Positions 30,913-54,561 of a stretch of 64,000 nt of DNA are shown here, one piece after another. The notes under the pieces were generated by a model. The model did no database searches. It was not told the DNA's origin and saw only the letters and a list, made by a program, of their open reading frames with translations. Source of the DNA: Streptomyces sp. NBC_00523 (GTDB lineage: Bacteria > Actinomycetota > Actinomycetes > Streptomycetales > Streptomycetaceae); assembly GCF_036346615.1 (NCBI RefSeq), contig NZ_CP107836.1, forward strand, positions 6,138,001 through 6,202,000, written 5' to 3'. The position numbers and the translations under genes are program-made. Position 1 is the stretch's first letter. Each line of letters begins with the position of its first letter.

Positions 30913-30929
30913 GTTCTAAAATATGGAAC
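30913..30929. promoter_or_regulatory. IclR-type operator, copy 1
   Basis: GTTCTAAAATATGGAAC, a 17-base near-palindrome between the OPT gene and the IclR regulator gene. It agrees at 14 of 17 positions with the site at 32553-32569 when that site is reversed. IclR proteins often bind such TTCCA/TGGAA dyads. Confidence 0.8.
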
Positions 30930-31066
30930 CGTGTGTGAATATCTGGATGTGCTGGATCATCTCCGGGGCACGCCCACCCGTCAAGGGGGTGGGCGGCGGT
31001 CTCGGTATGTGGGCGCCCCTTACGATCGGACGCACGGGCCAGGGGTCCGGGGGAGGCAGGAGAACG

Positions 31067-35285: not shown

Positions 35286-36577
35286 GGCGTCGCTCCGGCG
35301 GACGCGGGGTCGGCGGGCAGCGGTGCTCCGGCGCCGAAGGGGGCGCCGTCCGGCCACCAGAGGTCCTCGGGGCTCAGCGCGCCGACCTCGTACTTGCCCA
35401 ACGCGCTCACGAGCAGGCGCAGTTCGAGTGCGATGCTCTCGACGAGGCGTACCAGGCCGTGGTCCGGGTCCTCGTCCACGGCGACCAGCGCGGCGCGGCC
35501 GAGCCCGACGGCCGTGGCGCCCAGGGCGAGGGCGCGCAGGGCACGTCCGCCCTCCCACATCCCGCCGCTCGCGAGCAGGCAGCCCCCGGGCGGCCCGATC
35601 CGGCGCAGGCACTCCGCGAGCGGGAGGCCGACCTGGTCCAGGAAGACACGGGGCGCCCAGCCGGTGCCGCCCTCCGCGCCGTCCACGGTGACGGCGTCCG
35701 CCCCGGCCGCCCAGGCGGTGCGGGCGGCGTGCGCGATGTCGCGGCCCGGGTGGAACTTCACCCACGTACGGGCCTTGGGGAAGTTGTTCCGCATGAAGCG
35801 CAGCTGCTGGCGCAGGATCTCGTCGGTGAAGGTGCCCGGCGTGGCGCAGCGCAGCCGGCGTCCGTCGTCCGCGCCGAACGGGTCGGTGACCGTGAAGCGG
35901 TCCGCCAGCGCCTCCGCCTCCGCGCCCCCGACGACGGTCATGCCGCCGAGGCCCGGTTTGGCGCCCTGGCCGGTCTTCAACTCGAAGGCCAGGCGCCCCG
36001 ATGCGAGCAGCGGCCGGGTGGCGGGGTCGCTGTAGAGGAGGTTCCAGACCTCCGAGTCGGCGTCCTCGGTGGACTGCTGGACGACGATCCCGCCGACCCC
36101 CTCGGGCGCCGCGTCGAGATACGCCTCGATGCGCGCGAGGAGCGCGGAGCGGGCGGCGTCCCCGCCGCGCCGGTAGCCGTGCACGGGGACCATGTTCTCG
36201 CCGATGACCATGGGGATGCCGAGGCGGCCGGCCTGCCGGGACGCCTGCACGGCCAGGTCGCCGCTGCCCGCCCGGGTCGATCCGAAGGCGGACAGGTAGA
36301 GCGGCAGCGCGGCGGTGAACCCGCCAGTGCGTGCGCCCAGTTCGACGTCCCCGAACTCCGGCTCGCGGGCGAGGTCGATCAGCTTCTCCAGCCGCTCCGG
36401 CATGAAGACGGGCGGCACGATCCTGGCCCGGTCGAGCGCGTCCGTACCGGCCTCGCTTGCGGGGCCGAAGAGCTCTCCACCGTACGAGCCGGGGTCGGGG
36501 AACACCTCGGCGGTGCCGCGCCGGGCGCGGGCGCGGATCGCGCGCTCGGGGAGGCCGGGGGCGGCGAGGGCGCTCAC
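35282..36577 (-). CDS. FMN-dependent glutamate-synthase-domain protein
   Basis: A 431-residue FMN barrel of the glutamate synthase central-domain family (GltB domain 2, also seen in GlxD-type N-methylglutamate synthases). Motifs: LKTGQGAKPGLGG (about 218), VKFHPGRDI, ADAVTVDGAEGGTG (FMN and substrate loop), LASGGMWEG and GATAVGLGRAALVAV (phosphate binding). There is no amidotransferase domain and no obvious FeS cysteine cluster. In the family, this part turns 2-oxoglutarate and ammonia into glutamate or a related amino acid. Within this operon it could supply glutamate to the mutase or nitrogen to the synthetase (inference). Its GTG start overlaps the previous stop (GTGA). Confidence 0.88.
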   Translation of the reverse strand: MSALAAPGLPERAIRARARRGTAEVFPDPGSYGGELFGPASEAGTDALDRARIVPPVFMPERLEKLIDLAREPEFGDVELGARTGGFTAALPLYLSAFGSTRAGSGDLAVQASRQAGRLGIPMVIGENMVPVHGYRRGGDAARSALLARIEAYLDAAPEGVGGIVVQQSTEDADSEVWNLLYSDPATRPLLASGRLAFELKTGQGAKPGLGGMTVVGGAEAEALADRFTVTDPFGADDGRRLRCATPGTFTDEILRQQLRFMRNNFPKARTWVKFHPGRDIAHAARTAWAAGADAVTVDGAEGGTGWAPRVFLDQVGLPLAECLRRIGPPGGCLLASGGMWEGGRALRALALGATAVGLGRAALVAVDEDPDHGLVRLVESIALELRLLVSALGKYEVGALSPEDLWWPDGAPFGAGAPLPADPASAGATP

Positions 36578-38901
36578 GGGGCCACCACCCCGGGGAGCTT
36601 CGGGTAGGCGCTGACCTGCCACAGCGCGTCGAGGCCGGTGAGGAAGCGGACGAGGCGCTGAAGGCCCATCCCGAAGCCCGCGCTGCCCGGGATGCCCTCC
36701 CGGGCCTCCTTGAGGTACCAGGCGTACTTGGCGGGGTTCTCGCCGCTCTCCCGCATCCGGGTGACGATGGTGGCGTAGTCCGACTCGCGCTCGCTGCCCG
36801 AGACCAGCTCGCCGTAGCCGTGCGGCGCGATCAGGTCGAAGTTCCGCAGCACCCCCGGGCGTTCCGGGTCCTCCCGGTCGTAGAAGCCGCGCGAGCCCTT
36901 CGGATAGTCGTTGATGAAGAACGGCCGGTCGCTCTCCAGGGAGAGGAGCCGTTCGCCGGTCCAGTCGATCTCGCTGTCCGGGCTCTGCGGGTGACCAGTC
37001 GTCAGGAGCCGTGCCACGGCCTCCTGATGGGTGCACACGTCGTACTTGCCGCTGCGGACGTCCGCGAAGTCGGCCTCCTGGCGGCCCAGTTCGGCGAGCA
37101 CATCCGGCACGGCGGTCCATACGTGCTCGGCGACGTGGGTGAGGAGCCCGGCGGCGACCTCCTGCGCGTCCTCGCGGCTCGCCCCGGCGATCTCCACGTC
37201 GATCTGGTGGAACTCGACCAGATGGCGGCCCGTGGTGGCGGTCTCCTCCGGCTCCACGCGGACGTTGGGCGCGATGTAGAACAGCTTCGGGAAGCCGTGC
37301 AGCGACGCCTGCTTGTACAGGATCGCGCTGGTCATCAGCTTGTACGGGCGCCCGTAGTAGTCGACGTCCAGTGCCTTGGCCCCGCGCCCGCCCGGGTCGG
37401 TGACGGGTCCCACGAGCGGGGGCAGCAGCTCCGTGAAGCCCGACCCCCGCAGGAAGTCGCGGGCCGCCCACAGCGCTTCCTGCTGGACGAGCATGGCGGC
37501 GCGCAGCTGCGGGGAGCGCAGGTGCTCACCGAGCGGGGGCGGCAGGGCGGGTCCTGCGGCCTGCGGGGCGTGGTCCATGACGGGCTCCTCTTCGTGGCGG
37601 TGGTGAGGGGTGTCGGTGCGGGGTCGGTACGAGGGCACGGGGTCGGCCGGCGGCCGGTCGTAGCGGTCGGCCATGTGGTTCAGGGCGGTGAGCAGGCCGT
37701 TGGAGGTCAGCGGCGCCAGGTCGGCCGGGGCGTCGGGGCGGATCGGCATCGCGCCGGTGTCCGACCAGCGCAGCCTCCCGTCCGCGCCGATCACGCTGCG
37801 GGAGCGGCCCGCGTTGTCGGGGTGGAGGCAGAACGGCACGTCGAGCAGGCCGCGTTCGAAGGCGGCGGGCAGCGCGCGGGCCAGGTCGGGGTGCAGACCG
37901 AGCACGGCCTCCACCAGGGCCCGGGCCTCCGTGTAGACCTCGGAGTCGTCCCGGCCCACGGGCAGCGGGGGACCGGCGAGTGCGGCGGCCGCGGCGGCGG
38001 TCTCCAGGGCGCGGACGTTCTCCGCGACGGTCGGGATACGCCGGGACTCGGCGGTCGTCTTCACGAGGATCCGGTCCGCCCCGGCCCGCACCGCGAGCCG
38101 CGCCGACGCCTCCAGCAGCCTGGTCGCCCCGCGCTCGGTGCGCGGGTAGACGCCCATGTAGGTGTAGAGGACGACGTGGTGGTCGACGCCCGCCGGCAGC
38201 AGCTCGCCGGCCAGGCGGCGCAGGGCCCGTATCGCCTCCTCGTCCTGGCCCGGGTCCGTCTGCTGCGCGTAGCTCAAGGAGACGCTGCGCACCCCGTGCT
38301 GGGCGAAGAACAGGCATTCCAGCACGCTCATCGCGACCAGCAGCCCGGGCGGGCAGAGCTGGCCGAGCAGGCAGCCGCCGAAGCTTTCGAGGTGCGGCAC
38401 GGAACCGGGGCGGGCGTGCCCCGCGAGGAGTTCGCACCCCTCGGCCCAGGCGGCGACGGACTCGCGCAGCGGGGTGCGGCCGTACGGCAGGCAGTAGGAG
38501 ACGGGCCCGCCCTCGGTCGCGTCGAGCCCCGCGGCGAGCAGGGCCCGGACGATGGCCTGCGGGCGGGCGGAGCCGTGGCGGACCTGGACCGGGAACCCGT
38601 CGTCGTGCACCCCGTCGAGCAGGGCCCGGGTGACGGCGAGCGGGTGCGTGGCGATCGGGTAGCCGTTGAGCCCGGCCCCCTCGGCGAGCGCGGCACCGGC
38701 GCCCGCGAGGTCGCCGACGCGGGTGTAGCTGTCGATGGTGAGCGTCCCGACGGTCGTGGCCGTGGCGGCCCGGGTCCGCTCCAGCCCCGTACGCATGGCG
38801 GCCGGGTCGCCGAACCCCATGCGGGGCTGGACCACCAGCCGTCCGGCGGACGCGGAGGCCGCGACGAACGCGCCGAACGGGCGCGGCGCGGTGGCGGTCA
38901 T
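36574..38901 (-). CDS. fused glutamate mutase large subunit and asparagine-synthetase-like class II synthetase core
   Basis: One open frame of 775 residues with two unlike halves. Residues 1 to about 425 are the glutamate mutase E subunit (methylaspartate mutase barrel): FPVQVRHGSARP (substrate Arg), EGGPVSYCLPYGR and GVYPRTERGATRL. A Pro/His-rich linker (about 425-441) has no stop codon. Residues 442-775 are a class II aminoacyl-tRNA-synthetase core like archaeal AS-AR asparagine synthetase: YKLMTSAILYKQ, VEFHQIDVEIA (motif 2 region) and FGMGLQRLVRFL (motif 3), with no anticodon-binding domain. A good ribosome binding site (GAGGAG) precedes the internal ATG at 37578, so a separate second protein may also be made. 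The start overlaps the small-subunit gene (ATGA). Confidence 0.88.
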   Translation of the reverse strand: MTATAPRPFGAFVAASASAGRLVVQPRMGFGDPAAMRTGLERTRAATATTVGTLTIDSYTRVGDLAGAGAALAEGAGLNGYPIATHPLAVTRALLDGVHDDGFPVQVRHGSARPQAIVRALLAAGLDATEGGPVSYCLPYGRTPLRESVAAWAEGCELLAGHARPGSVPHLESFGGCLLGQLCPPGLLVAMSVLECLFFAQHGVRSVSLSYAQQTDPGQDEEAIRALRRLAGELLPAGVDHHVVLYTYMGVYPRTERGATRLLEASARLAVRAGADRILVKTTAESRRIPTVAENVRALETAAAAAALAGPPLPVGRDDSEVYTEARALVEAVLGLHPDLARALPAAFERGLLDVPFCLHPDNAGRSRSVIGADGRLRWSDTGAMPIRPDAPADLAPLTSNGLLTALNHMADRYDRPPADPVPSYRPRTDTPHHRHEEEPVMDHAPQAAGPALPPPLGEHLRSPQLRAAMLVQQEALWAARDFLRGSGFTELLPPLVGPVTDPGGRGAKALDVDYYGRPYKLMTSAILYKQASLHGFPKLFYIAPNVRVEPEETATTGRHLVEFHQIDVEIAGASREDAQEVAAGLLTHVAEHVWTAVPDVLAELGRQEADFADVRSGKYDVCTHQEAVARLLTTGHPQSPDSEIDWTGERLLSLESDRPFFINDYPKGSRGFYDREDPERPGVLRNFDLIAPHGYGELVSGSERESDYATIVTRMRESGENPAKYAWYLKEAREGIPGSAGFGMGLQRLVRFLTGLDALWQVSAYPKLPGVVAP

Positions 38902-39487: not shown

Positions 39488-39703
39488 TCAGGCGTACTGG
39501 GCGACCAGGCTGCGGGGGCGGATGTCGGTCCAGTGCGCGGTGATGTACTCCAGGGCCTCGGAGCGGTTACCGGGCCCCCAGACACCTTCCCAGCCTGCCG
39601 GGATGTCGGCGAAGGCCGGCCACAGGGAGTGCTGTCCCTCGTCGTTCACCACGACGTGGAAGGAGCCCTCGGCGTCGTCGAAGGGGTTCGCGATGTCGCT
39701 CAT
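39488..39703 (-). CDS. MbtH-like protein
   Basis: A 71-residue MbtH protein, typical length. The signature is intact: [40 protein letters not shown], with the three conserved Trp residues. MbtH proteins bind A domains and are needed for their folding or activity. Its ATG overlaps the stop of the last NRPS gene (ATGA), so it is made with it. The free-standing and trans-acting A domains in this cluster are likely clients. Confidence 0.95.
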
Positions 39704-42700
39704 GAATAACTCCTCGTTTCGTTTTCCCGCAGGCTGTTTTCCTGCAGTGCAGAGATTTTCTCCGCGATGACTTTTCCGATGTGTGCGAGCGGTTCTTCCT
39801 CGGCCATCCGGAGATGCGTGGAATTCACGGTGTGGTTCTCGACCCGGCCCGTCAGATAAGCATTCCAGGTGGCGGCCAGTGCGCCTTCCGGTTCGCCGGG
39901 CCTGCGGGCGGTGAAGAACACCGCGCCGGTGTCCGCGACCTCGGGCACGTGCCGCGCCATGAGGGCCGCATGGGTCTCGGAGGCCCGCTGCACCGCCCGG
40001 ATCTCCTCGGCGCTGAAGCCTTCGAGCACCGGGTCCGCCGCCTCCGGCAGCGCGTCCTCGTCGGGCGCCGCATCCGGCTCCCGCGCCGGCAGCACGGACA
40101 CGCTGCCCGGCCCGGTCTGGTGGACATCCATCAGCGCGAGCAGTTCGACGCGCTGACCGGCCGCGCGGAGCCGGACGGCCATGGTGTGGGCGACGATCCC
40201 GCCGAAGGACCAGCCGAGCAGCCGGTACGGGCCCCAGGGCTGGACCTGCCGGACGCGTTCCAGGTAGTCGTCGGCCATCTCCTCGACGGAGCGCGGGAGA
40301 TGGCCCGGCTCGCTCAGCGCGCGGGCCTGGAGGGCGTACAGCGGCTGGTCCTCCCCGAGGTGCCGGGCCAGGCCCGCGTACGACCAGCCGACCCCGGTCC
40401 CCGGGTGTACGCAGAACAGCGGGCGCCGGGTGCCCCGGGTGTTCAGCGGCAGCAGGACGCCCATCGCACCGGCCGTGCCGTCCGGGTCCTGCGCACCGAG
40501 CAGCCCGGCCGGGGTCGGGGCGCGGAACAGATCGCGGACCGTCCGGTCGATGCCGAGGACCGAGCGCACCCGGCTCACCAGGCGCACACCGAGCAGCGAA
40601 TGCCCGCCCAGCGTGAAGAAGTTGTCGTCCAGACCGACCCGGGGCGCGCCCAGGATCTCGGCGAACAGCCCGCACAGCACCTCCTCCCTGGCGTTGCGCG
40701 GCGCCCGGTACCCGACGGCGGTCCGGTCCGGCGCGGGCAGCGCCCGGCGGTCCGGCTTCCCGTTCACGGTCAGCGGCACGGCGTCCAGGACGACGACCGC
40801 CGACGGCACCAGATGGGCGGGCAGCGCGGTACGGGCCAGGGCGAGGACGTCCGCCCCGGCGACCTCGGACCCGGCGCGCGGCACCACGTACCCGACGAGG
40901 GTCCGCTCGCCCGGCCGGTCCTCGCGCACGACGGCGAGGGCCTGGCCGACCGAGGGGTGCGCGGCGAGCGCGTGCTCCACCTCGCCCGGCTCGATCCGCA
41001 CCCCGCGCAGCTTGACCTGGCCGTCCGCCCGCCCCAGGAACCGCAGTTCGCCCTCCGGCGTCCAGACGACCCGGTCACCGGTGCGGTACATCCGGCTGCC
41101 GTCCGCCTCGAACGGGTCGGGGACGAACCGCTCGGCGGTCAGGTCCGGGCGGCCGGTGTACCCGCGCGCCACATGCGTACCGGCGATGTACAGCTCACCG
41201 GGCACCCCCGGCGGCACCGGCCGCAGCGCCGCGTCCAGAACGTGGCTGCGGGTGTTGTCCATGGGCCGGCCCAGATGCAGCCCGGCCGCGCCGAGCGAGC
41301 CCCGGCCGCCGGTGAGCCACTGGTTGTGCGAGGCGAACGTCGTCTCGGTGGGGCCGTAGGAGTGGACGAGGGCGGTGTCCGGGCAGTGCGTCAGGACCCG
41401 TTGCACGGCGGTGGGCGAGGCGACGTCGCCGCCCGTCCACACCTCGCGCAGCAGCCGCAGCGTGTCCAGCGCCTCATCGGCCATCACATGGAACAGGCCG
41501 ACGGTGAAGTAGGCGACGGTGACGCCGTGTTCGCGGACGGCGCGGGCGGTCTCCGCGAGGTCGGTGCCGTCGCCGCGCATGACGACCAGGCTGCCGCCGT
41601 TGAGGAGCGGCACCCACATCTCGAACACCGAGGCGTCGAAACCGGTCGCGGAGTGGACCAGCATCCGGTGGGGACCGCCGGCGGTGGTGTCGCGGTCCGC
41701 GGCCAGCTCCGTCACATTGCGGTGGGTGACGCCGACGCCCTTCGGGCGGCCGGTGGACCCGGACGTGAACATCACGTACATCAGGTCGTCCCCGTCGACC
41801 GCCACGGCCTCGCGGTCCGCAGGCGGGGTGCCCTCGGCGGGCGCGTCGGTCAGGAGGACCGGTACGGAGACCTCCTCCGGCACCACGGCCGCCTGCCCGG
41901 TGTCCGTCGCGATCAGGCGCACATCCGCGTCCTGGACCATCAGCGCGATCCGCGCCCCGGGCAGGGCCGGGTCCAACGGTACGTACGCGGCACCGCACTT
42001 GAGGGCGGCGAGCGCGGTCACCACCAGCGGGACACCGCGTTCCAGCAGGACCCCGACGGTGTCGCCCCTGCGCACCCCGGCCGCGAACAGCCGGGCGGCC
42101 AGCGCGTCGGCCCGGGCGTCGAGCTCGGCGTAACCGACGGTCTCCGCGTCGGTGATCAGCGCGGGCGCCTCCGGCGTGAGCGAGGCCCGGCGGGCGATGA
42201 CCTCGTGGACGGGGGCCCGGTCGCGGGTCGCGGTGGCCGTGTCGTTGTACTCCGCGACCAGCCGGAACCGCTCGGCCTCGGTGAGCAGGCCCACCGCCCC
42301 GATCCGTACCCCCGGATCGGCGGCGACGGTGCGCAGCAGACGCCCGATGTGGGCGGCGATCAGGTCGGCGGTGGCGGCGTCGAACAGGTCGGTGGCGTAT
42401 TCGAGCCCACCCGCCAGACCGGCCGGCCGCCCCGCCTCGTCCTTCCGCTCCCACAGGGCGAGGGTGAGGTCGAACTTGGTGGACAGCGTTTCCAGCGGCG
42501 CCGGTTCGGCCCGGAGCAGCGGCCCCTCGGAGCGGTCGGCCGTGTAGTCGTGGTGCAGCTGGACGACGAACTGGGCCAGCGGGTGGTGGGCGGTGGAGCG
42601 GGCCGGGTTGAGGTGTTCCACGATCCGGTCGAAGGGAAGCCGCTGATGTGCGTAGGCCGCGAGATCCGTGTCGCGCACCCGCCCCAGCAGCTCGCCGAAC

Positions 42701-45700
42701 TCCGGGTCACCCGACGTGTCGGTGCGCAGGACCAGCGTGTTGACGAAGAAGCCGACCAGATCGCTCAGCGCCTCGTCGTCGCGCCCGGCCGTCATGGTGG
42801 CCAGCGGCAGATCGGTGCCTGCCCCGTGCCGGGTGAGGACGGCGGCGAGCGCGGCCTGCAGCACCATGAAGAGCGTCGCGCCGTGGCGCCGGGCCAGCTC
42901 CTCCAGGGCCTCGTGCGTGGCCGCGTCGACGGCGAGCGGCGCGTGGCCGCCCCGGTGGGTGGCCTCGGCGGGGCGGGGCTTGGCGGCGGGCAGTTCGAGG
43001 ACGGGCGGCGCCCCGGCGAGGGCGCGTTCCCAGAAGGCGAGATGGTCATGCGCCGCCGGTCCGTCGAGAAGTTCCTGCTGCCAGAGCGTGTAGTCGGCGT
43101 ACTGGACGGGAAGCGGCGCCCAGTCCGGTGCGTGGCCCTCGGCGCGGGCGGCGTAGGCGGCGCCCAGGTCCGCGAGCAGCGGCCCCGTCGACCAGCCGTC
43201 GGCCGCGATGTGGTGGACGAGCACGACGAGCACCTGACCGCCGCCGTCGTCCGGGGTGAGCAGGGCGGCCCGCAGCGGGAGTTCCCCGGCGAGGTCGAAG
43301 ACATGCCCGGCCGCCGAGGCGACCGCCGCCCGGAACCGCCCGGCCGGCACCGTCCGTACGTCGAGCACGGGCCGGGCGTCCGCCACGATCGCCTGGTACG
43401 GCTCCCCGTCCACCGACGGATAGCGGGTCCGCAGCACCTCGTGGCGCTCCACCAGATCGGCCAGGGCACGGCCGAGGACCTCGGCGTCCAGCGGCTCCGC
43501 CGGACGCAGCACCAGCGGGATGTTGTACGAGGCGCTGGGACCTTCCAGCGCGTCGATGAACCAGAGCCGGTGCTGCGCCCGGGACAGCGGCAGGCGCTCC
43601 GGCCGCTCCGTGCGGCGGACCAGCGCGGGCCCCTCGTCGCCGGTGGCCCGGTGTTCCGCGATGCGGCGGGCCAGGGCGGCCGGGGTCGGGGCGAGCAGCA
43701 GGTCCCGGACGTGGACGTCGACGCCCAGGCGGGCCCTGATCCGGTTGGCGAGCCGCACCCCGCTCATCGAGTGGCCGCCGATGGTGAAGAACCCCTCGTC
43801 CGGGCCGACCTCGTCCAGCCCCAGGATCTCCGCGAACATCTCCCGCAGGGTGTCCAGGTGTTCCGCGTCCGGTGCGCCGCCCGCCCGGGCCGCCTCGGCG
43901 TCGGCGGCCTGCCGGGCGGCGAGGGCCGCGACGCGCTCACGGCGGCCGGCGAGGGCCAGGCGCTCCTCGTCGCCCAGCAGCCCGGAGTCGGCGACGGGCG
44001 CCCCGGGCCGCTCGGCAGCCGTACGCAGGGCGCGTTCCAGGGCGCCCAGGAGGAGGCGGGCGGTGTCCTCGTCGAGGACGTCACGCGCGTACTCCAGGCC
44101 GAGTTCGAGCCCGGCGGGGGAGCCGTCGGAGGTGCGGTGCTCCACGCAGGCGGCGGTCAGGTCGAACTTGGTGGTCGCGGGGCCCTCCGCCCGGAAGCGG
44201 CCGGTGAGCGCGCCGAACGCGAAGGGGGCGTCGTCCGGGGCGGCCGTGCGCAGGGTGAGCATCGTCTGGAAGAGCGGGTGCACCCCGGGCGTGCGCGGCG
44301 GGTTCAGATGCTCCACCAGCAGGTCGAAGGGGAGGCCCTGGTGCTCGTAGGCGGCGAGGTCCGTGTCGCGTACCCGCTCCAGCAACTCGGCGAACGCCGG
44401 GTCACCCGAGGTGTCGGTCGGCAGGACCAGCGTGTTGACGAAGAAGCCGACGAGCGCGCCCAGCGCCTCGTCGTCCCGCCCCGCCACCGGCGTCCCCACG
44501 GCCACCCGCTCCCCGCAGCCCGCCGCCCGCAGCGCGAGGGCCAGCGCGGCCTGGATCACCATCAGCATGCTCGCGCCGTGCGCGTCGGCCAGCCCGGCGA
44601 GCCGGGCGTGCGCGGCCGGATCGAGGCGCGTGGCGACCACGCCGCCCCGGTGGTCCGGCACCGCCGGGCGCGGCCGGTCCAGCGGCAGATCGGTCACGGC
44701 CGGCAGCCCGTCCAGCGCGGCGCGCCAGTGGGCGAGCCCGCGCGCGACGGCGGAGTCCGGGTCGTCAGCCGTACCGAGGACGTCGTGCTGCCACAGGGTG
44801 TAGTCGGCGTACTGGACGGGAAGGGGCTCCTGCTCCGGCGCCCGCCCCTGTGCACGGGCGGTGTACGCGGCGGCCAGGTCGTTCATCAGCGGCGCCAGCG
44901 ACCAGCCGTCGCCCGCCACATGGTGCAGCAGCACCGCCAGCACCGCCTCCGGACCCTCGTCCCCCTCGGGCACGAACAGCGCCACCCGCAGCGGCAGTTC
45001 CCGCGCCAGGTCGAACGTCTCGGACACGAAGTCCTGGACCCGATCCCGCAGTTCACCGGCCGGGCACTCGACCGTACGCGCCCGCACCGCCGACGCGGCC
45101 AGCACATGCTGGTACGGCTCGTCCTCCGGGGCCAGGAACACGGTCCGCAGCACCTCGTGCCGCTCGGCGAGATCCGCGACGGCGGCGGCCAGCGCCGCCC
45201 GGTCGGGCACCCCGTCCAGCTCCAGCACGATCGGCATGTTGTACGCGCAGGACGGCCCGTCCAGCTGATCCAGCAGCCACAGCCGGCGCTGCGCGTGCGA
45301 CAGCGGCACCCGGTCCTCGGCGGGCAACGGCTCCTCGTGGACGACCGAAAGACGGGGGTCCGTGGTCCGCAGCACCTTGCGGTTGATCTTCCCCGAGCTG
45401 GTACGGGGCAGCGCGGCGACGATACCGACGGCGGCGGGCACGGCGGCGGCGGGCATCCGCTCGCGCACCAGGCCGCGCAGTTCCTCGGCCCCCACCCCGC
45501 CCTCGGTGACGACGAACGCGACGAGCCGCTTGACCCCGTCCGCGTCCTGCTGGGCGACGACGGCGGCCTCCCGGACCTTCGGGTGCGAGGACAGGACCGA
45601 GTCGACGGCGGCGGGGTCGATGCGCTGCCCGCCGATCTTCACCTCGTCGTCCAGCCGCCCGTGGTACAGGATCTGCCGGTCCTCGCCGATCGTGACGAGG

Positions 45701-46803
45701 TCCCCGGTGCGGTAGGCGCGCTCCCCGTCCAGCTCGGTGAACCGGCGGGCGTTCAGCTCCGGGTTGCTCAGATAGCCGTACGACAAGCCACCGCCGAGCA
45801 GCCACAGTTCACCGCCGACGACGGCCGCCCGGACCCCAGGCAGCGGCCGGCCGATCGGCACCGGACCGTCCCCGTGGCGGGTCAGGTCGGCGACCGTCGC
45901 GACCACCGTGGTCTCCGTGGGGCCGTACGCGTTCAGCAGCCGCGTCCGCTCTCCGGTCAGCTCCCGCCACTGGGCGACCCGCTCCGGAAGCGCCGCCTCC
46001 CCATAGATGATGACCGTGTCCAGGCAGCCGGGCAGGCCCACCGCACCGGTGCTGAGGACATGGACCAGCTCGTGCCAGTACGCGGCCGGCAGGTCGAGCA
46101 CCGTGATCCCGTGCCGCGCGCAGCCGGCGAGCAGGTCGCGTACGTCCAGCATGTCGTCCGTCCGCAGCACCAGCGTCCCGCCGGCCCCGAGGGTCGCGAA
46201 CACCTCCTGCACGCTGGCGTCGAAGTGCAGCGGCGAGAACTGAAGGACCCGCGAGTCGGGCCCGATGCCGTACGCGGGGACGGCGCCCGCGATGAAGTGC
46301 GCGAGCGAATCGTGGGCGACGACCACGCCGTTGGGGGTGCCCGTGGAGCCGGAGGTGTAGATCACGTACGCGGCACCGGCCGGTGCGCCCGGGCCGGGCA
46401 GGACCAGTTCACCGGCGACGGCCACCTCGGCGGGCGTCGGCGCCAGGTCGCCGCAGCTGTCCTGGAGGATGGCCGCGTTCCGCGCGTCGGGGGCATGGAT
46501 GTCGAGGGGCAGGTAGGCGGCGCCGGTGGTGAGCACGGCGAGGAGGCCGACGATCGCGTCGATCCCGCGCGGGCGGTGGAGGGCGACGAGGCGGCCGGGG
46601 GCGGCGCCCTCGGCGGAGAGGGTCAGGGCCCGTTCCCGTACGGCGTCCGCGAGTTCCGCGTACGTCAGCCGGGCGGTGTCGTGGACCAGGGCGACCGCAT
46701 CGGGGCGGGTCTGCGCCTGGTGGGCGATGAGGTCGAGCACCGGCGGGGCGGGCGAGGGAGAGGGGCCGCCGTCGAGCAGGTCGTCCGTTCTGATGGGGGG
46801 CAT
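39700..46803 (-). CDS. terminal NRPS, A-C-T-C-A-T-TE
   Basis: A 2,367-residue NRPS. Domains: A (about 1-490), C (498-930, HHVAGDG), T (980-1055, FTIGGHSM), C (1070-1500, HHIAADG), A (1533-2020), T (2032-2105, FTLGGHSL) and TE (2128-2355, GWSFGG). The first A domain has no carrier after it, only about 20 residues before the C domain, and its A3 motif is [10 protein letters not shown], with Asn for the usual Lys; by alignment with GrsA its pocket is close to D-A-Q-D-I-Y-A-V-V-K. The last A domain reads close to D-A-F-Y-W-G-S-F-A-K. Neither matches a code I know. The middle module (C-T) lacks its own A domain. The TE releases or cyclises the peptide. GGAGGAAA precedes the ATG. Confidence 0.94.
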
Positions 46804-46978: not shown

Positions 46979-49900
46979 TCACCCCCGCCGGGCACCCGCC
47001 CTGGTCCGGCGGCGCAGCGTCGGAGCGGCCACCGGACCGGCGTCCTCCGGCTCGATCGCGTCGGCCACGGCCCCGGCGAGCCGCCGGGAGAGGGTGGCCG
47101 CCGTCGGGTTGCGGAACACATCGCGCAAGGTCAGGTCCTGGCCGAACTCCTTCCGGATCCGGTTCAGCAGCCGCACCGCCAGCAGCGAGTGCCCGCCGGA
47201 CTTGAAGAAGTTGTCGTCCGCCCCGAGCTCCCGCCCGCCCAGCACGTCCCGGAAGATCCCGAGCAGCCGCCGGTCCGTGCCCCCGCCGCCCGCCGGTGCG
47301 GCGGCCGGGCCCGCCGCGGCGTCCTCGGACAGCTCCGCCGGGTCCTCGCCCGGAGCGGGCAGCCAGGCCGTCCGCACCACCCGGGACGGGGCCAGATACT
47401 CGGGCAGCCGCTCGGCGGCCCAGGCGCGCAACGCGCTCTCGGCGGGCGGCGACCCCGGGGCGCAGGTGACGAAGACCAGCAGTCGCCCGTCGCGGACGAG
47501 GACCCGCGCCCCGGTCACCGCCGGATGACGGGTCAGCACACCCTCCACCTGGCCGGGCTCCACCGGATAGCCGTTCACGCGTTCGACGGCCACCGGCCGC
47601 AGCACCCCGTCCGCGCCCCGGTACGCCCGCCGCCCGGTGGCGCGCAGCCCACCGCCCGGCGCCGGCTCGTGCACCTCGCCCGGCACGCGGACCGGCACCT
47701 GGCGCCCCTGCGCGTCGAGGACCACCTCCGGGCCGCCCGGCGCGGGCTGCCCACCGCCCAGCGCGGAGAGCGGCGCCTCCGGGTCCGCCGCGCACGCGTC
47801 CAGCGTTTCGGCGAGGCGCCGGACCAGCAGCCGGGCCGTCTCCGCGTCGTACAGGGCCGTGACGTACTCCAGAGCGCCCCGCAGCCCGGCCCGCTCCCCG
47901 TCCGGGCCCACCGTCTCGGTGAGCGCGAACGTCAGGTCCGACTTGGCTCCCGCGCCCCGGAACGCCATCGGCTCGCCGTCCAGCGCGGACGGGGTCGCCG
48001 AGGCGTCGCCCGCGCCCGCCGCGTGCACCTGGAGCATCACCTGGACGAGCGGCGCGTGCGCGGATGAACGGTGCGGGCTCAGGTGCTCCACGAGCCGGTC
48101 GAACGGCAGATCCTGGTTGCTGTACGCCCCGAGGCCCCCGTCGCGGACCCGGCGCACCAGCTCGGTGAAGGCAGGGTCGCCCGAGGTGTCCGTACGCAGC
48201 ACCAGGGTGTTCACGAAGAACCCGACGAGCGGGTGCAGCGCCTCGTCGCCCCGGCCCGCCACGGTGGTGCCGATGGCCAGGTCGTCACCGGCCCCGTGCC
48301 GGGTCAGCAGCGCGGCGAGCGCGGCCTGCACCACCATGAACAGGGTGACGCCGTTCTCCCGCGCACACCGCAGCAGCGCCCGGTGGGTCTCCGCGCCCAC
48401 CTCGAACTGCGCGAGCGCGCCCCGCCCGTCCGGCTCCGGCCTGCGCGGCCGGTCGGTGGGCAGCGCGAGCAGCGGCGGCATCCCGTCGAGCGCGGTGCGC
48501 CAGTACGCCAGCTGCTCACCGGCCACCCCGTGCTCACCGTCCAGCAACTCGTGCTGCCACAGGGTGTAGTCGGCGTACTGGACGGGAAGCGGTCGCCACC
48601 CGGGCGCCCGGCCCGCGCACCTGGCCCGGTAGGCCCGGTCCAGGTCGGCGAGCAGGCAGCCGGTGGACCAGCCGTCCCCGGCGATGTGGTGCACCAGCAG
48701 CACCAGCACCTGGCCCCCGTCGGCCTCCTCCAGGAGCCACGCCCGGAACGGGATCTCCGCGGCGAGGTCGAACACGTACCCGGCGGCGGTGTCCACGGCC
48801 GCCCGCAGCTCCTCAGGACCGCCCGTCCGCACCACGTCGAGCACGGGTTCGGCGTGCGCCAGCACCTCCTGGTACGGCTCCCCGTCAGCCGACCGGTGCA
48901 CCGTGCGCAGCACCTCGTGCCGCCGTACGACATCGGCGAGCGCGGCACGGAAGGCGGCGGGCTCGACCGGGCGGCGCAGCCGGGTCACCACCGGAATGTT
49001 GTAGGTCGCGCTCGGGCCCTCCAACTGGCCGACGAACCACAGTCGTTGCTGCGCGGCGGAGAGCGGGAGCCGCTTCGGCCTTGCCGCGGCCGGCACCGGG
49101 CGCAGCGGCGGCCGGACCGGCCCGTCGCCCTGTTCCGCGAGGCGCCGCAGCAGCCGGGCGGGCGTCGGCGCCAGGAACACGTCACGGATGGCGGCCTGGA
49201 CGCCGAGCGCCTTGCGGATGCGGTTGGTGAGCTTCCCGGCCAGCAACGAGTGCCCGCCCAGCTTGAAGAAGCTGTCGTCCGGGCCGACGTCGTCCCGGCC
49301 CAGCACCTCCGCGAACAGGCCGCGAAGGATCTCCTCGCGGGGGTCGGCGGCGGCGGTGCGCCGGTCCTCGCCGTCACGCGGCTCGCCCTGGGTGGCGGCG
49401 GCCCGCTGTTCGGCCCGGGTCAGGGCCTCGTGACGGCGGTCGATGGCCTCGCGGTCCGAGGCGGTGAGCAGGCCGGTCCGGCTGAGGGGTGTGCCGGCCG
49501 GCTGTTCCGCGTAGGCGGTCAGCGCGCGGTGGAACAGGGTGAGGAGCAGGCGAGCCGTCTCCTCGTCGTACAGGTCGGTCGCGTACTGCAGGCCGAGCAG
49601 TACCCCGGCGGGATCGCCGTCGGGACCGTACGTCTCGGCACAGTTGAAGGTCAGGTCGAACTTGGCGGTGGCCAGGTCCGCGGCGTCGAGGGTGCCGGAT
49701 ACGGCCCCCAGGGTGCAGGTGGTGTCCTGCGCGGTCTGCGTGGTCAGCATGACCTGGAAGAAGGGGTGCAGGCCGAGGGACCGTTCCGGGTTGAGGTCCT
49801 CGACGAGCAGGTCGAACGGCAGGTCCTCGTGGGCCATGGCGGCCAGGTCCCGTTCCCGGACCCGGTCGAGCAGCGTGCCGAGGTCCGGGTCGTCGGACAG

Positions 49901-50794
49901 ATCGGCGCGCAGGGCGAGCGAGTTGACGAAGAAGCCGACGAGGTCGTGCAGATCCTCCTCGGGCCGGCCCGCCACCGGTGTCCCCACCACCACGTCGGGC
50001 CCCGCCCCCGCCGCCTGCAAAGCGGCGCAGAGGGCGGCCCGGGCGGTCATGAAGAACGTCGCGCGGTGGGCGCGGGCGGTCGCGGCGAGCGCCTTGTGGG
50101 CGGCGGCGGAAAGGCGGGCGGTGACCAGCTCTCCCCGGTGGCTCGGCTCGGCGGGGCGCGGGCGGTCGGCGGGCAGCCGGGTCGCGGCCGGTGATCCCTC
50201 CAGAGCCGTACGCCAGTAGGCGAGTTGTTCGTGCGCCAGGCTGTCGGGATCGGCGGGTTCGCCGAGCATGTCCCGCTGCCACAGCGCGTAGTCCGCGTAC
50301 TGCACGGGCAGGGGTTCCCACCCGGGTGCGCGGCCCTCGCACCGGGCCGCGTAAGCCCGGTCGAGGTCGGTGAGCAGGCAGCCGACGGACCATCCGTCGG
50401 TCGCGATGTGGTGAACGAGCAGCACCAGCACGGCACTTCCGTCGTGCGCTGTGAACAGCCGTGCCCGCAGGGGCAGATCGCTCGTCACGTCGAACGGCAG
50501 CCGCACGAAGGCGGTGACCAGCGCGTCCACGTCCTCGCCCGGCCCGCACTCCCGTACCTCCAGGCGCACGCCGGGATCGCCGACGACCTCCTGGTACGGC
50601 TCCCCGTCCACGGCCTTGTAGACCGTACGGAGCACTTCGTGGCGGTCCACCACGTCACGGACCGCCGCCTCCAGGGCGCCCGGGTCGGGCGCGGCCTCCA
50701 GGCGCAGCACGACGGGCGCGTTGTACGCGGCCGACGGGCCTTCGAGACGGTTCAGGAACCACAGCCGGTGCTGGGCGTACGAGAGGGGGATCAC
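46979..50794 (-). CDS. NRPS without a working A domain, C-T-C-(A remnant)-T
   Basis: A 1,271-residue NRPS. Domains: C (1-440, HHIATDG), T (481-551, FKLGGHSL), C (576-1010, HHIAGDG), a remnant of an A domain (about 1020-1150), T (1173-1245, FKSGGHSL). The remnant aligns only with the end of A domains: VPGEVHEP, RAYRGADG for YRTGD, and ERVNGYPVEPGQVE for the A8 hinge. The A1-A5 core and the final catalytic Lys (NGK is replaced by APGEDP) are gone. Both modules must therefore be loaded by other proteins. It starts at a GTG directly at the C domain (IPLSYAQHRLW) after GAGGAG. The C-terminal tail PTLRRRT is shared with the upstream NRPS. Confidence 0.92.
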   Translation of the reverse strand: MIPLSYAQHRLWFLNRLEGPSAAYNAPVVLRLEAAPDPGALEAAVRDVVDRHEVLRTVYKAVDGEPYQEVVGDPGVRLEVRECGPGEDVDALVTAFVRLPFDVTSDLPLRARLFTAHDGSAVLVLLVHHIATDGWSVGCLLTDLDRAYAARCEGRAPGWEPLPVQYADYALWQRDMLGEPADPDSLAHEQLAYWRTALEGSPAATRLPADRPRPAEPSHRGELVTARLSAAAHKALAATARAHRATFFMTARAALCAALQAAGAGPDVVVGTPVAGRPEEDLHDLVGFFVNSLALRADLSDDPDLGTLLDRVRERDLAAMAHEDLPFDLLVEDLNPERSLGLHPFFQVMLTTQTAQDTTCTLGAVSGTLDAADLATAKFDLTFNCAETYGPDGDPAGVLLGLQYATDLYDEETARLLLTLFHRALTAYAEQPAGTPLSRTGLLTASDREAIDRRHEALTRAEQRAAATQGEPRDGEDRRTAAADPREEILRGLFAEVLGRDDVGPDDSFFKLGGHSLLAGKLTNRIRKALGVQAAIRDVFLAPTPARLLRRLAEQGDGPVRPPLRPVPAAARPKRLPLSAAQQRLWFVGQLEGPSATYNIPVVTRLRRPVEPAAFRAALADVVRRHEVLRTVHRSADGEPYQEVLAHAEPVLDVVRTGGPEELRAAVDTAAGYVFDLAAEIPFRAWLLEEADGGQVLVLLVHHIAGDGWSTGCLLADLDRAYRARCAGRAPGWRPLPVQYADYTLWQHELLDGEHGVAGEQLAYWRTALDGMPPLLALPTDRPRRPEPDGRGALAQFEVGAETHRALLRCARENGVTLFMVVQAALAALLTRHGAGDDLAIGTTVAGRGDEALHPLVGFFVNTLVLRTDTSGDPAFTELVRRVRDGGLGAYSNQDLPFDRLVEHLSPHRSSAHAPLVQVMLQVHAAGAGDASATPSALDGEPMAFRGAGAKSDLTFALTETVGPDGERAGLRGALEYVTALYDAETARLLVRRLAETLDACAADPEAPLSALGGGQPAPGGPEVVLDAQGRQVPVRVPGEVHEPAPGGGLRATGRRAYRGADGVLRPVAVERVNGYPVEPGQVEGVLTRHPAVTGARVLVRDGRLLVFVTCAPGSPPAESALRAWAAERLPEYLAPSRVVRTAWLPAPGEDPAELSEDAAAGPAAAPAGGGGTDRRLLGIFRDVLGGRELGADDNFFKSGGHSLLAVRLLNRIRKEFGQDLTLRDVFRNPTAATLSRRLAGAVADAIEPEDAGPVAAPTLRRRTRAGARRG

Positions 50795-50856: not shown

Positions 50857-52698
50857 TCAGCCATCCTTGGCGGCCGTCAACTCCTCGATGTGGGCGGCGA
50901 GATCACGCAGCCTCGGGTGGGCGTAGACCGCCTTCACCGGAAGCGCGACGGCGAGTTCGGCACGTACGCGCGACACCAGCTTGATGGCGAGCAGCGAGTG
51001 GCCGCCGAGCTTGAAGAAGTTGTCGTCCGGGCCGATCGACGCGGCGCCCAGCACCTGCGCCCACACCCGGCCGATCAGCTCCTCCGCCCGCCCGTTCAGC
51101 CCGGCGCCCCGCTCCGGCGCCTCGACCGGCGAGGCCGCCTCGATCCGGGCCGGCAGCGCGGACCGGTCCAGCTTGCCGCTGGGTGTCGTCGCGAACCGGT
51201 CGACCGCGACGAACGCGGACGGCGTCATGTACGAGGGCAGCGCCCCCGCCACGGCGCTGCGCAGCGCGCTGGCGTCCCCGCCCCGGTGGTAGGCGATCAG
51301 GCACGGCGTGCCCCCGGCGTCCTCGCCCAGGACCACCGCCGCCTCCGTGGCGCCCGCCCGGCTCAGGGTCGCCTCGATCTCCTGCACCTCGATGCGGTGG
51401 CCGCGCAGCTTCACCTGCCCGTCGAGCCGTCCGAGGTGCACGAGGCGCCCGTCCGGCAGCAGCCGGCAGCGGTCCCCGGTGCGGTACATGCGGTCCCCCG
51501 GCGCGCCGAACGGGTCGGCGACGAACCGCTGGGCGGTCAGGTGGGGGCTGCGCCGGTAGCCGCGCGCGATCCGGGGCCCGGCGAGATACAGCTCCCCGGC
51601 CTCACCCGGACCGACCGGCGCCATGCGGGCATCCAGCAGCCGCATCCGCAGCCCCGGGAGGACGGCACCGATGTGCGGCTCGCCCGGCTCCTCGATCCAG
51701 CCGGCCGTGGCGTCGACCGTGCACTCGGTGGGCCCGTACACGTTCACCGCGCGCAGCACACCCGCCCGGTGGGCGTCGGCCAGCCGGTCCCACAGGGCCG
51801 GGCCGATCGCCTCGCCGCCGACGAGCAGCGTCAGCGGGCGCGGGCCGCCGTCCGGGGTGAGCAGGTCCAGGAGCGGTTCGGCGTGCGACGGGGTGATGTC
51901 CAGATCGGTGAGCTTCTGCGCGTCGATGAAGGCGGCCAGCAGGGCCGGGTCGCGGCGGGTCTCCTCGTCCATCATCACCAGCGTGTCCCCGCGCGACAGC
52001 CGCACCCACTGCTGCACCGACGCGTCGAACGACGGCGACGCGTTCCACCCGACCCGCCGCCCCTCACCGCGCGCCGCACCCTCGTCCTCCAGCTCCCGCA
52101 GCAGCAGCGAGGCCGAACCGCGCGCGATCTCCACACCCTTGGGCCGGCCCGTGGAGCCGGAGGTGTAGATGACGTACGCGAGTGCGTCCGGCCCCACCGG
52201 CACCGGCGCGAACGCCCCGCCGGGGAGCGCGGTCAGCTCGCCGACCGTGACCGCCCGGGGGCCGGGAAGCGCCGGACCGGTGCCGTCCGTGACCACCAGG
52301 TCGGCGCCGGAGTCCTCGAGGAGCAGCCGCCGCCGCTCCTCGGGGAGAGCCGGGTCCACGGGCAGGTAGGCGGCGCCCGCCGTGAGGGTGCCGACGATCG
52401 CGGTGACCAGGTCGGCCCCGCGCGGCAGGCAGAGCGCCACGACGCTCTCCGGCCCGGCACCCCGCCGGGTGATCCCGGCCGCGAACGAGGCGGCGTGCTG
52501 TCGGAACTGGTTGAACGTCAGCTCTCGGTCCCCGGCGACGACGGCGGTGCGGTCACCGGGCACGGCCGCGAGCCGGGCCATCAGGTCGGCGGCGCCGGTC
52601 CCGGCGGCGGTGCACGTCTCGCAGGGGCAGCCGGCCGGGTGGGCGAGGGCGGAGGCGGTCGCGCGCTCGGGGAGTACGGCGGTCATGGCGGGGCTCAC
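50857..52698 (-). CDS. free-standing A-T didomain, glutamine-type
   Basis: A 613-residue protein with an A domain (about 45-530) and a carrier (about 545-605, FKLGGHSL). A3 is [12 protein letters not shown]5 VYGPTECT and the final Lys is in PSGKLDR. The GrsA-aligned pocket reads D-A-Q-D-L-G-V-V-D-K, the known glutamine code of lichenysin synthetase (glutamate differs at the third place). A short Cys-rich N-terminus (CPCETC, about 24-29) comes before the A domain. With no C domain it must pass its amino acid on in trans, probably to an A-less module of the next protein, perhaps after hydroxylation by the dioxygenase encoded just upstream. The GTG start overlaps that gene (GTGA). Confidence 0.92.
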   Translation of the reverse strand: MSPAMTAVLPERATASALAHPAGCPCETCTAAGTGAADLMARLAAVPGDRTAVVAGDRELTFNQFRQHAASFAAGITRRGAGPESVVALCLPRGADLVTAIVGTLTAGAAYLPVDPALPEERRRLLLEDSGADLVVTDGTGPALPGPRAVTVGELTALPGGAFAPVPVGPDALAYVIYTSGSTGRPKGVEIARGSASLLLRELEDEGAARGEGRRVGWNASPSFDASVQQWVRLSRGDTLVMMDEETRRDPALLAAFIDAQKLTDLDITPSHAEPLLDLLTPDGGPRPLTLLVGGEAIGPALWDRLADAHRAGVLRAVNVYGPTECTVDATAGWIEEPGEPHIGAVLPGLRMRLLDARMAPVGPGEAGELYLAGPRIARGYRRSPHLTAQRFVADPFGAPGDRMYRTGDRCRLLPDGRLVHLGRLDGQVKLRGHRIEVQEIEATLSRAGATEAAVVLGEDAGGTPCLIAYHRGGDASALRSAVAGALPSYMTPSAFVAVDRFATTPSGKLDRSALPARIEAASPVEAPERGAGLNGRAEELIGRVWAQVLGAASIGPDDNFFKLGGHSLLAIKLVSRVRAELAVALPVKAVYAHPRLRDLAAHIEELTAAKDG

Positions 52699-53732
52699 TT
52701 TCCGTACAGGGTGGTGGAGGGGGCGGAGGCGGGCGAGCAGTCGGACAGCGGCACCGGCTCGCCCATCGCGACGAGGATCTTCCGCTCGCCGGTGAACGCC
52801 TCGCGGCCGTGCGCGCAGAGGATGTTGTCCACGAGCATCACGTCACCGGTCTGCCAGCTCTCCCGTACGGTGACCGCCTGGTACGCCTCGTTGATCGCGT
52901 CCACCTCCGCGTCGGTGAGGGCGGTGCCGTCCCCGAGGAAGGTGTTGAACGGCAGCCCGTCCGCGCCGAACGTCTCGACCAGCACGTCACGGACGTCCTC
53001 GTCCAGGCTGCGGGCGTTCCAGAAGGCGAAGTGGTTGAACCAGACCTTCTCACCGGTCACCGGGTGCGTGATGATCGCGGAACGCCGCTGCCGGGTCCGG
53101 AGGGTGTCCTCGTCCAGCCAGTCGTAGCCGATGGCGTGCGCGTCGCAGTACTCCTCGGCACCGGCCGGGTCCTCCGAGGAGAACGCCTTGCGCCACGGCA
53201 TGCCCGCCAGGTCCGAGTAGTTGCGTACGAGCAGCCAGCCGGCCTCCGCGAACCGCGCGGTCAGCTCCGGCGGCAGCTTCGCGAGCGCCGCCCGCATGTC
53301 ACCGACCGTCGTCGCGCCGCCGGTCTCGGCCGCGGTGACGCAGCCGAAGAGCAGCACCCCGGGGAAGTCCAGCGTGTAGCTGTTCTCGTTGTGCAGCCGG
53401 ATCGGCTGGACGGCCGGCAGGTCCGTGGACGAGAACACGCCCTCACCGAAGTCCGTGCGCGGGGTGGCCTTCTCCTTGTAGCCGGCCCGCTCCGCGATCA
53501 GCGCGTCACGTGCCTCGGCGAACGTCGCCGCGTCCCGCACCGGCAGTCCGCGCAGCATGACCGCGCCGGACCGGTGCAACTCGGCCTGGATCGCATGCCG
53601 CTGGGCGTTCAGCCACGCGGTGGCCTCCGCCATGGTGCCGAACTCCGGCGTGTGGACGATCACCGGCTTGCCGGGCTCGCGAACGGGGGTGATACCGGTG
53701 GCGGCGGCGGGCGGCTGGGCGAGAGCGGTCAC
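52695..53732 (-). CDS. TauD-family Fe(II)/2-oxoglutarate dioxygenase (amino acid hydroxylase)
   Basis: A 345-residue TauD/TfdA-family enzyme, similar in type to SyrP. The iron ligands are His and Glu in LHNENSY (HxE, about 145) and the distal His in ILCAHGREAF (about 316); the Arg just after binds 2-oxoglutarate. Such enzymes hydroxylate the beta carbon of an amino acid, often while it is on a carrier protein. It sits next to the free-standing A-T gene, so beta-hydroxyglutamine on that carrier is the likely product (inference). The GTG start at 53732 follows AGAGGAA. The stop overlaps the A-T start. Confidence 0.92.
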   Translation of the reverse strand: MTALAQPPAAATGITPVREPGKPVIVHTPEFGTMAEATAWLNAQRHAIQAELHRSGAVMLRGLPVRDAATFAEARDALIAERAGYKEKATPRTDFGEGVFSSTDLPAVQPIRLHNENSYTLDFPGVLLFGCVTAAETGGATTVGDMRAALAKLPPELTARFAEAGWLLVRNYSDLAGMPWRKAFSSEDPAGAEEYCDAHAIGYDWLDEDTLRTRQRRSAIITHPVTGEKVWFNHFAFWNARSLDEDVRDVLVETFGADGLPFNTFLGDGTALTDAEVDAINEAYQAVTVRESWQTGDVMLVDNILCAHGREAFTGERKILVAMGEPVPLSDCSPASAPSTTLYGK

Positions 53733-53778
53733 GATGGGTTCCTCTTTCTCGGCTTGGTTCGAACGAAGTGGGGTGGGG

Positions 53779-54561
53779 TTACGCGGACGCGGCGGCGGAG
53801 TCGCGCAGGGCGTCGAGGACCGGGTTGAGACGGGCGAAGAAGCCCGCCAGGTCCTGCTGGAAGTAGAAGTGGTCACCGGGCAGCACCTGCGGCTCGACCT
53901 CGTGCCCGGTCACCAGCGACCAGCCCGCCAGCATCTCCGCCGGGACGATCGGGTCGGCGTCCCCGCCGAACACCGCCACGGGGCAGTCCAGTTGGGCGTT
54001 CGGGGCGGTGCACCGGTAGGCATCGTCGATCGCGAAGTCGGCGCGGATGGACGGCAGGACGATCTCGCGCAGCTCGGGGTCGTCGAGGATGCCGTCGTCG
54101 GTGCCGCCGCGCTCCTTGATGGCCGCGACCAGCTGGTCGTCGTCCAGCAGTTCCGGATGCACGGGGCACTGGTTCGGCAGCACCGGCGCCCGGCACGCGG
54201 AGGCGATCAGCAGGCGCGGAGTGCGGCCGGCGGCCCGCAGGGCGCGTACCACCTCGAAGGCCACCAGCGACCCCATGCTGTGCCCCAGCACCACCAGCTC
54301 ACCGGTGTCGGCGGGCAGCGAGTCCACCACGGGCTGCGCCAGGTCGTCCACGGACAGCGGCAGGTCCTCGCAGTAGCGGGCGCCGCGGCCCGGGTACTGG
54401 CCGATCAGCAGCCGCACATCGGCCGGCAGGTGCTCGCGCCAGCCGCCGTAGGCGTGGGCGTTGCCCCCGGCGTGCGGCAGCACCAGCAGCGAGAGGCGGT
54501 GCGGGCCGTCACCGGGAAGGTCCCAGACGACGTCTTCGGGGGCGGGGGACACGGAGGTCAT
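53779..54561 (-). CDS. type II thioesterase
   Basis: A 260-residue alpha/beta hydrolase of the type II thioesterase family. Nucleophile Ser in GHSMGS (about 94), Asp in GGDADPIV (about 203) and His in PGDHFYF (about 232) form the triad; the family opening LLVLPHAGGNAHAY is present. It clears wrong or stalled acyl groups from the carriers of the assembly line. Its ATG overlaps the stop of the large NRPS (ATGA). Confidence 0.95.
   Translation of the reverse strand: MTSVSPAPEDVVWDLPGDGPHRLSLLVLPHAGGNAHAYGGWREHLPADVRLLIGQYPGRGARYCEDLPLSVDDLAQPVVDSLPADTGELVVLGHSMGSLVAFEVVRALRAAGRTPRLLIASACRAPVLPNQCPVHPELLDDDQLVAAIKERGGTDDGILDDPELREIVLPSIRADFAIDDAYRCTAPNAQLDCPVAVFGGDADPIVPAEMLAGWSLVTGHEVEPQVLPGDHFYFQQDLAGFFARLNPVLDALRDSAAASA

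What the first reader, a model, noticed from the sequence alone, without database searches (positions are those of the whole stretch)
45300..46803. A domain joined directly to a C domain without a carrier
The last NRPS begins with an A domain that runs into a C domain after about 20 residues. With no carrier of its own it must load a carrier elsewhere. Its A3 motif has Asn in place of Lys and its hinge motif is unusual ([11 protein letters not shown]). It may serve the A-less modules.
Basis: partly seen in the sequence, partly recalled or inferred. Interest (0 to 1): 0.7.

Follow-up and report, generated by a model that had tools for sequence, protein, structure and literature searches.

The report
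Peptide-factory loader domain without own carrier
In a Streptomyces-type peptide gene cluster, an amino-acid-selecting domain sits directly in front of a peptide-bond-forming domain with no carrier of its own; the arrangement is conserved in some fifty related clusters, and the domain most likely loads the several carriers that lack a working selector of their own.

Summary
The last NRPS (39700-46803, minus strand) reads A-C-T-C-A-T-TE, with 24 residues and no carrier between the first A and C. It is not a relic: the junction occurs in 50 of 51 loci examined (the other runs off its contig), the A domain folds normally in a model, keeps its catalytic motifs and is under purifying selection. The 'odd' A3 Asn and DDEVKI hinge are inherited: the A domain is kin to MxcG, the lysine-activating myxochelin synthetase. 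22 of 47 relatives keep MxcG's pocket code (DAEDxGTVVK); the window's clade changed it once (DAQDIYAVVK), so the present substrate is open. The A-less C-T modules 5 and 7 (plus extra copies in relatives) share one condensation-domain type, modules 6 and 8 another. Module 6's A domain is intact in 1 of 39 NRPS2 proteins, dead in 8 and without its N-terminal part in 30; the intact one has A8's code. Best reading: the carrier-less A loads T7 across C7 and T5 in trans, while A8 probably loads T6. This resembles inter-modular loading shown for fungal SidC/SidD. A new variant of a known kind; loading itself is untested.

The parts
45355..46803 (-). N-terminal A domain of NRPS3 (A7), MxcG-type, code DAQDIYAVVK, A3 [10 protein letters not shown], hinge [12 protein letters not shown]10 SGKINR; no carrier follows
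   Evidence: motifs; Pfam; NF038078 stretch 7-483; code; tree
45304..45354 (-). short A-to-C linker without carrier motif
43996..45303 (-). C7, condensation domain fused behind A7 (X-type)
   Evidence: PF00668; HMM; C tree
43654..43860 (-). T7, carrier after C7 (FFTIGGHS), no A domain directly before it
39700..43587 (-). rest of NRPS3: C8-A8-T8-TE; A8 code DAFYWGSFA
46979..50794 (-). NRPS2: C5-T5-C6-[A6 C-terminal remnant]-T6, tail APTLRRRT
47312..47581 (-). A6 remnant: C-terminal subdomain only, no A3 and no A10 motif
   Evidence: PF13193 31.5 bits
50857..52698 (-). A-T didomain, code DAQDLGVVDK (glutamine-type as recalled); lacks the LRRRT tail
52695..53876 (-). TauD-family dioxygenase, candidate hydroxylase of the A-T-bound residue
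   Evidence: PF02668
53779..54561 (-). thioesterase (type II-like)
   Evidence: PF00975
54558..64000 (-). NRPS1, runs past the window (L004); 4 modules with own A domains, tail RPTLRRRT
39488..39703 (-). MbtH-like protein directly after NRPS3
   Evidence: PF03621
38898..39311 (-). glutamate mutase small-subunit-like B12-binding protein
   Evidence: PF02310
36574..38901 (-). methylaspartate mutase E chain read in frame into asparagine synthetase A

Best explanation
The domain is an active adenylation domain of MxcG-like (lysine-activating) descent. It stands in front of the C-T half-module 7, so that A precedes C in an A-C-T unit. It loads T7 in the same chain, reaching across C7, and also loads T5 (and extra copies of it in relatives) in trans on NRPS2; these carriers belong to one A-less C-T module type. 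Module 6 could lose its own A domain because A8, which has the same pocket code, can load T6. Growing peptide passes NRPS1 to NRPS2 to NRPS3 from LRRRT-tailed subunits into C5 and C7, so the fused A domain is a loader and not a starter. Shown: architecture, conservation, kinship, decay of A6, two C-domain types. Inferred: activity, which carriers are loaded, hand-over through the tails, substrate. In the window's clade the pocket changed (E239Q, G301Y by GrsA numbering), so a neutral or amide residue (glutamine, 3-hydroxyglutamine, 3-methylasparagine) is likelier than lysine.
For: Junction in 50 of 51 loci. Catalytic motifs kept (the four apparent A10 misses L075, L083, L084, L087 have GKI/GKT on inspection, and L086 is cut off). 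dN/dS of the A7 N-part 0.14-0.23 and C-part 0.04-0.15 in four pairs, below intact A8 (0.22-0.27 and 0.15-0.50). AF2 model of A-C-T, mean pLDDT 81, blocks of the A core mostly 82-98; Foldseek finds A-T-C and A structures. A-C domains group with MxcG-type domains, support 0.993 for 77 sequences; all 25 Q239 domains form one clade, support 1.0. C5, C5b and C7 form one clade (47 of 94 C domains, support 0.853) apart from C6, C8 and NRPS1; C5 and C7 of one genome are 81% identical in L079 and 73-75% in L083/L084, against 49-55% for C5/C6. 16 loci have an extra C-T module with no extra A domain. Intact A6 (L080) groups in the A8 clade and has A8's code. LRRRT tails on NRPS1 and NRPS2, absent from A-T.
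Against: No loading was tested. In the window itself C5/C7 identity is only 56% (C5/C6 53%) and T5/T7 51% (T5/T6 49%), so the pairing rests on the family tree. Shared C type can come from tandem duplication or gene conversion and need not mean one substrate. The A-T didomain is a second possible loader for the same carriers, and its role is not explained by this model. The node uniting the 47 A-C domains has support of only 0.244. The T-domain tree is weakly supported; in it T6 sits near the A-T carriers. The model's domain placement is uncertain (pTM 0.53).
Confidence: 0.5

Rival explanations
1. Strict one-to-one pairing: A7 loads only T7 in the same chain (a permuted A-C-T module), while the separate A-T didomain supplies T5, after hydroxylation by the TauD enzyme.
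For: A7 and T7 lie on one protein in every locus that reaches that far intact; A-T is encoded directly before NRPS2 and is fused to it in L049/L025 with a degraded carrier.
Against: C5 and C7 are one type and resemble each other most within some genomes; 16 loci have an extra C-T module without an extra loader.
Confidence: 0.22
2. A7 replaces the lost A6: it loads T6, the last carrier of NRPS2, across the subunit border, and A-T supplies T5 and T7.
For: T6 is the last domain of NRPS2 and A7 the first of NRPS3; A6 is dead or deleted in 38 of 39 NRPS2 proteins.
Against: L080 has A7 although its A6 is intact; A6's code matches A8, not A7.
Confidence: 0.12
3. The A domain is a relic that only props up the C domain.
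For: No carrier follows; A6 in the neighbouring protein shows that A domains do decay in this family.
Against: Catalytic motifs intact and selection at least as strong as on A8.
Confidence: 0.04
4. Sub-hypothesis on the substrate, compatible with the best explanation: A-T, TauD and the thioesterase make free 3-hydroxyglutamine (as recalled for beta-hydroxytyrosine supply in glycopeptide pathways), and A7 re-activates it for the A-less carriers.
For: The A-T code is the recalled glutamine code DAQDLGVVDK; the window's A7 code also begins DAQD; A-T has no LRRRT tail.
Against: 22 of 47 A7 domains have the MxcG (lysine) code although the A-T/TauD pair is present in many of those loci.
Confidence: 0.2

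Closest known systems
MxcG, myxochelin synthetase (NCBIfam NF038078)
   Same: Closest family of the A domain (548 bits over model positions 443-961); A3 Asn and DDE-type hinge occur in its relatives too; pocket code identical in 22 of 47 family members.
   Different: MxcG is C-A-T-reductase and feeds its own carrier; here A is in front of C and has no carrier; in the window the pocket is altered.
Fungal SidD / SidC NRPS (PMC10192304, abstract and passages read)
   Same: One A domain loads several carriers; SidD has a neighbouring A domain truncated at its N-terminus; modules without A domains.
   Different: There the loading A domain has its own carrier directly after it and loading is proven; here A is carrier-less, bacterial, and acts partly between proteins by inference.
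VibF, vibriobactin synthetase (recalled; not read or tested)
   Same: A followed by C and then a carrier.
   Different: VibF has cyclisation domains and a different product.
Lipopeptin/neopeptin pathway (PMC10172682 and PMC8211649, passages read)
   Same: Lipopeptin is an octapeptide with beta-hydroxyglutamine and methylasparagine, residues that A-T/TauD and mutase/AsnA could supply; seven A domains reported for its putative cluster.
   Different: It needs N-methylphenylalanine, and the NRPS1 codes here do not look like Thr-Asp-Ser-Ser (recalled codes); none of the family loci L040-L089 is titled S. hygroscopicus or S. rimosus.

Membership tests
MxcG-type lysine adenylation domain | groups with MxcG-type A domains in a tree | tested here: met
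   support 0.993
MxcG-type lysine adenylation domain | pocket code DAEDxGTVVK | tested here: not met
   window DAQDIYAVVK; 22 of 47 relatives keep E239
MxcG (whole synthetase) | full-length MxcG equivalog score | tested here: not met
   548 bits against cut-off 2300 for the 501-residue A region; whole NRPS3 952 bits
SidC/SidD-type inter-modular loading | modules without a working A domain on a line with intact ones | tested here: met
SidC/SidD-type inter-modular loading | one A domain shown to load several carriers | not testable with these tools
   needs purified proteins
Stand-alone trans-loading A or A-T protein (SyrB1 type, recalled) | A domain on a separate protein | tested here: not met
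   A7 is fused to C7 in 50 of 51 loci, the other being cut off; the cluster's A-T didomain does meet it
VibF-like A-C-T order (recalled) | A directly before C, carrier after C | tested here: met
VibF-like A-C-T order (recalled) | cyclisation domains before A | tested here: not met
   A is the first domain of the protein

The most novel reading that the evidence does not exclude
A bacterial assembly line in which one carrier-less A domain sets every X position of an alternating X-Z peptide, loading T7 across a condensation domain and T5/T5b on another protein, so that a single pocket change (E239Q with G301Y, once in the tree) rewrote two or three residues of the product at a stroke, while the Z positions are likewise taken over by A8 as A6 decays.
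Probability: 0.37. Interest if true: 0.68.

Novelty: new variant of a known kind. Interest (0 to 1): 0.5.

Why it matters
Bacterial NRPS products are usually predicted from the order of A domains. Here A-domain number and order would not give the peptide, and the family shows the A domain of one module from intact through dead to nearly deleted. That makes A-domain sharing, and how one A domain comes to serve several carriers, directly testable, and suggests a natural design for changing several residues of a peptide by changing one domain.

Tried and rejected
Relic: disfavoured by motifs, dN/dS and conservation. Frameshift or carrier lost by sequencing error: rejected, 48 of 51 loci show the junction by motif and 2 more by HMM. 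A7 as a starter domain: disfavoured because NRPS2 ends with the same LRRRT tail as NRPS1, pointing to hand-over into C7. Lipopeptin as product: the residues fit only in part. Nine of the ten paper searches, for methylasparagine, glutamate mutase, lipopeptin/neopeptin, hydroxyglutamine, trans-loading, VibF and A-C-T architectures, listed no paper that I recognised as describing this cluster; I read passages only of the papers named in this report, and the library lacks most subscription journals. The tenth search was for MxcG. My HMM label 'MutN' was a wrong-frame reading of the B12-binding gene and is not a domain; a PDB search of that wrong-frame stretch found nothing. The T-domain tree was too weakly supported to decide the pairing.

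Full report
What is there. The window is G000:C1:6138001-6202000. On the minus strand, in gene order: NRPS1 (4 modules, each with its own A; it runs past the window, L004), a thioesterase, a TauD-family dioxygenase, an A-T didomain, NRPS2 (C5-T5-C6-[A6 remnant]-T6), NRPS3 (A7-C7-T7-C8-A8-T8-TE), MbtH, a B12-binding glutamate mutase small subunit, and a mutase E chain read in frame into asparagine synthetase A. The finding is the A7-C7 junction. Module numbers are mine.

A7 has all core motifs, then 24 residues, then C7. In 199 same-genus genomes (own included), 17 have a match at E <= 1e-110: 11 have a match covering both A and C, and 7 loci in 7 genomes (one of which, G113, also has the A-C locus) match the A domain only. 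A scan of named genomes kept the best 80 of 365 confirmed places; 50 (L040-L089) belong to the A-C family and 30 (L090-L119) match essentially the A domain only. The scan used two A-domain peptides, so it is no census. Over the window and L040-L089 the junction without carrier was seen in 48 of 51 by motif, in L071 and L080 by HMM, and L086 ends too early. Record titles include Streptomyces, Micromonospora, Actinocorallia and Allorhizocola. That the window itself is a Streptomyces is inferred from these, not told by a tool.

Kinship. NCBIfam's best family for the A7 region is MxcG. Of four relatives tested, two (L100, L118) pass the MxcG cut-off and two (L095, L106) do not. MxcG activates and loads lysine (PMC8400222, passages). 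In the tree, 47 A-C domains and 30 C-A-T relatives form one group, support 0.993; the node uniting the 47 has low support (0.244), so I claim kinship but not a firm single origin of the junction. All 30 relatives have E239 (27 DAED[IVL]GTVV, 3 DTEDVGTVV), and 17 of 30 have Asn at the A3 position. Of the A-C domains, 22 of 47 keep E239 and 25 of 47 have Q239, the latter a single clade, support 1.0. The window is in the Q239 clade. A first table of codes left position 278 as a gap for A8 and some others; the later alignment left position 299 as a gap for A-T, which reads as L.

Is it working? dN/dS against four close relatives (L040, L041, L044, L048; simple Nei-Gojobori): A7 N-part 0.230, 0.156, 0.142, 0.146; A7 C-part 0.147, 0.038, 0.047, 0.087; A8 N-part 0.274, 0.223, 0.239, 0.267; A8 C-part 0.169, 0.150, 0.267, 0.503; A6 remnant 0.062, 0.285, 0.398, 0.274. 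The AF2 model of A-C-T, from 32 sequences (of 43 listed), has mean pLDDT 81 and pTM 0.53: the domains are confident, their mutual placement is not. Foldseek's best match is the DhbF cross-module fragment 5u89, then LgrA. An MbtH partner lies directly downstream.

Who needs loading? T5, T6 and T7 have no working A domain directly before them. C domains from 22 loci chosen out of 51 (94 domains) split at the midpoint root into C5/C5b/C7 (47, support 0.853) and C6/C8/C9/NRPS1 (47, support 0.995). Identities C5/C7 against C5/C6: L079 81/55, L083 73/49, L084 75/50, L087 62/47, but in the window only 56/53. Extra C-T modules occur in NRPS2 of 16 loci (L049, L052, L054, L055, L060, L062-L066, L068-L070, L072-L074), with no extra A domain. 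In Allorhizocola (L124, L125) there is a further C-T-C-T unit whose two C domains lie nearest to the two types. So the line looks like a repeated X-Z pair, with one A for X at the front of NRPS3.

Decay of A6. One search lists 42 entries; I dropped the window's NRPS1 (wrong protein), L125 (duplicate of L080) and L124 (a different unit). Of the 39 left, A6 is intact in 1 (L080), present in part or whole without A3 and A10 in 8 (L062, L065, L071, L073, L079, L083, L084, L087), and lacks the N-terminal part in 30. L124's unit keeps only 74 residues there. Loci whose NRPS2 end the script did not catch (for example L077, where it lies in a separate frame and is degraded) are not counted. A6 of L080 groups with A8 and has its code DAYYWGSFA. 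The simplest reading is that A8 took over T6. In fungal SidD the truncated A lacks about 290 N-terminal residues and that carrier is loaded by another A domain (PMC10192304, passages): the same kind of solution.

Direction of the chain. NRPS1 and NRPS2 end in [AR]P[AT]LRRRT-like tails in most loci where the end was read (a few read LRKR, LKRR or LRRRA, and masked or frame-broken ends in L045, L057 and L058 show none); the A-T didomain does not carry one. This fits hand-over from NRPS1 to C5 and from NRPS2 to C7, with A7 as loader. In L049/L025, A-T is fused to NRPS2 and its carrier is badly degraded (score 7), a possible second route to an A-C junction; a sequencing error is not excluded.

What remains open. 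Which carriers A7 loads, and with what. The cluster can plausibly make hydroxyglutamine (A-T, TauD) and 3-methylasparagine (mutase, AsnA); both are inferences from family names. Both residues occur in lipopeptin (PMC10172682, passages), whose putative cluster was reported with seven A domains (PMC8211649, passages), but the codes of NRPS1 here do not suggest that peptide. I do not name the product.

Noticed in passing
46982-47698 (-), and L062, L065, L071, L073, L079, L080, L083, L084, L087, L124: Graded decay of one A domain (A6) across species: intact, full-length but dead, partly deleted, C-terminal part only, nearly gone.
   Followed up: yes
C-termini of NRPS1 (near 54561) and NRPS2 (near 46982): Conserved tail [AR]P[AT]LRRRT on peptide-donating subunits but not on the A-T didomain; candidate docking motif.
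   Followed up: partly
L049:2143-9840 (same cluster as L025): A-T didomain fused to NRPS2 with a degraded carrier, giving a second near A-C junction.
   Followed up: partly
36574-38901 (-): Methylaspartate mutase E chain and asparagine synthetase A are one open frame here but separate frames in some relatives (e.g. L045, L046, L047).
   Followed up: partly
8454-10109 (-): Protein with a C-terminal PEP-mutase-type domain (residues 287-516) and a long N-terminal part without a Pfam match, next to glycoside hydrolase genes.
   Followed up: no
29213-31738 (-): OPT oligopeptide transporter-like protein beside the cluster.
   Followed up: no
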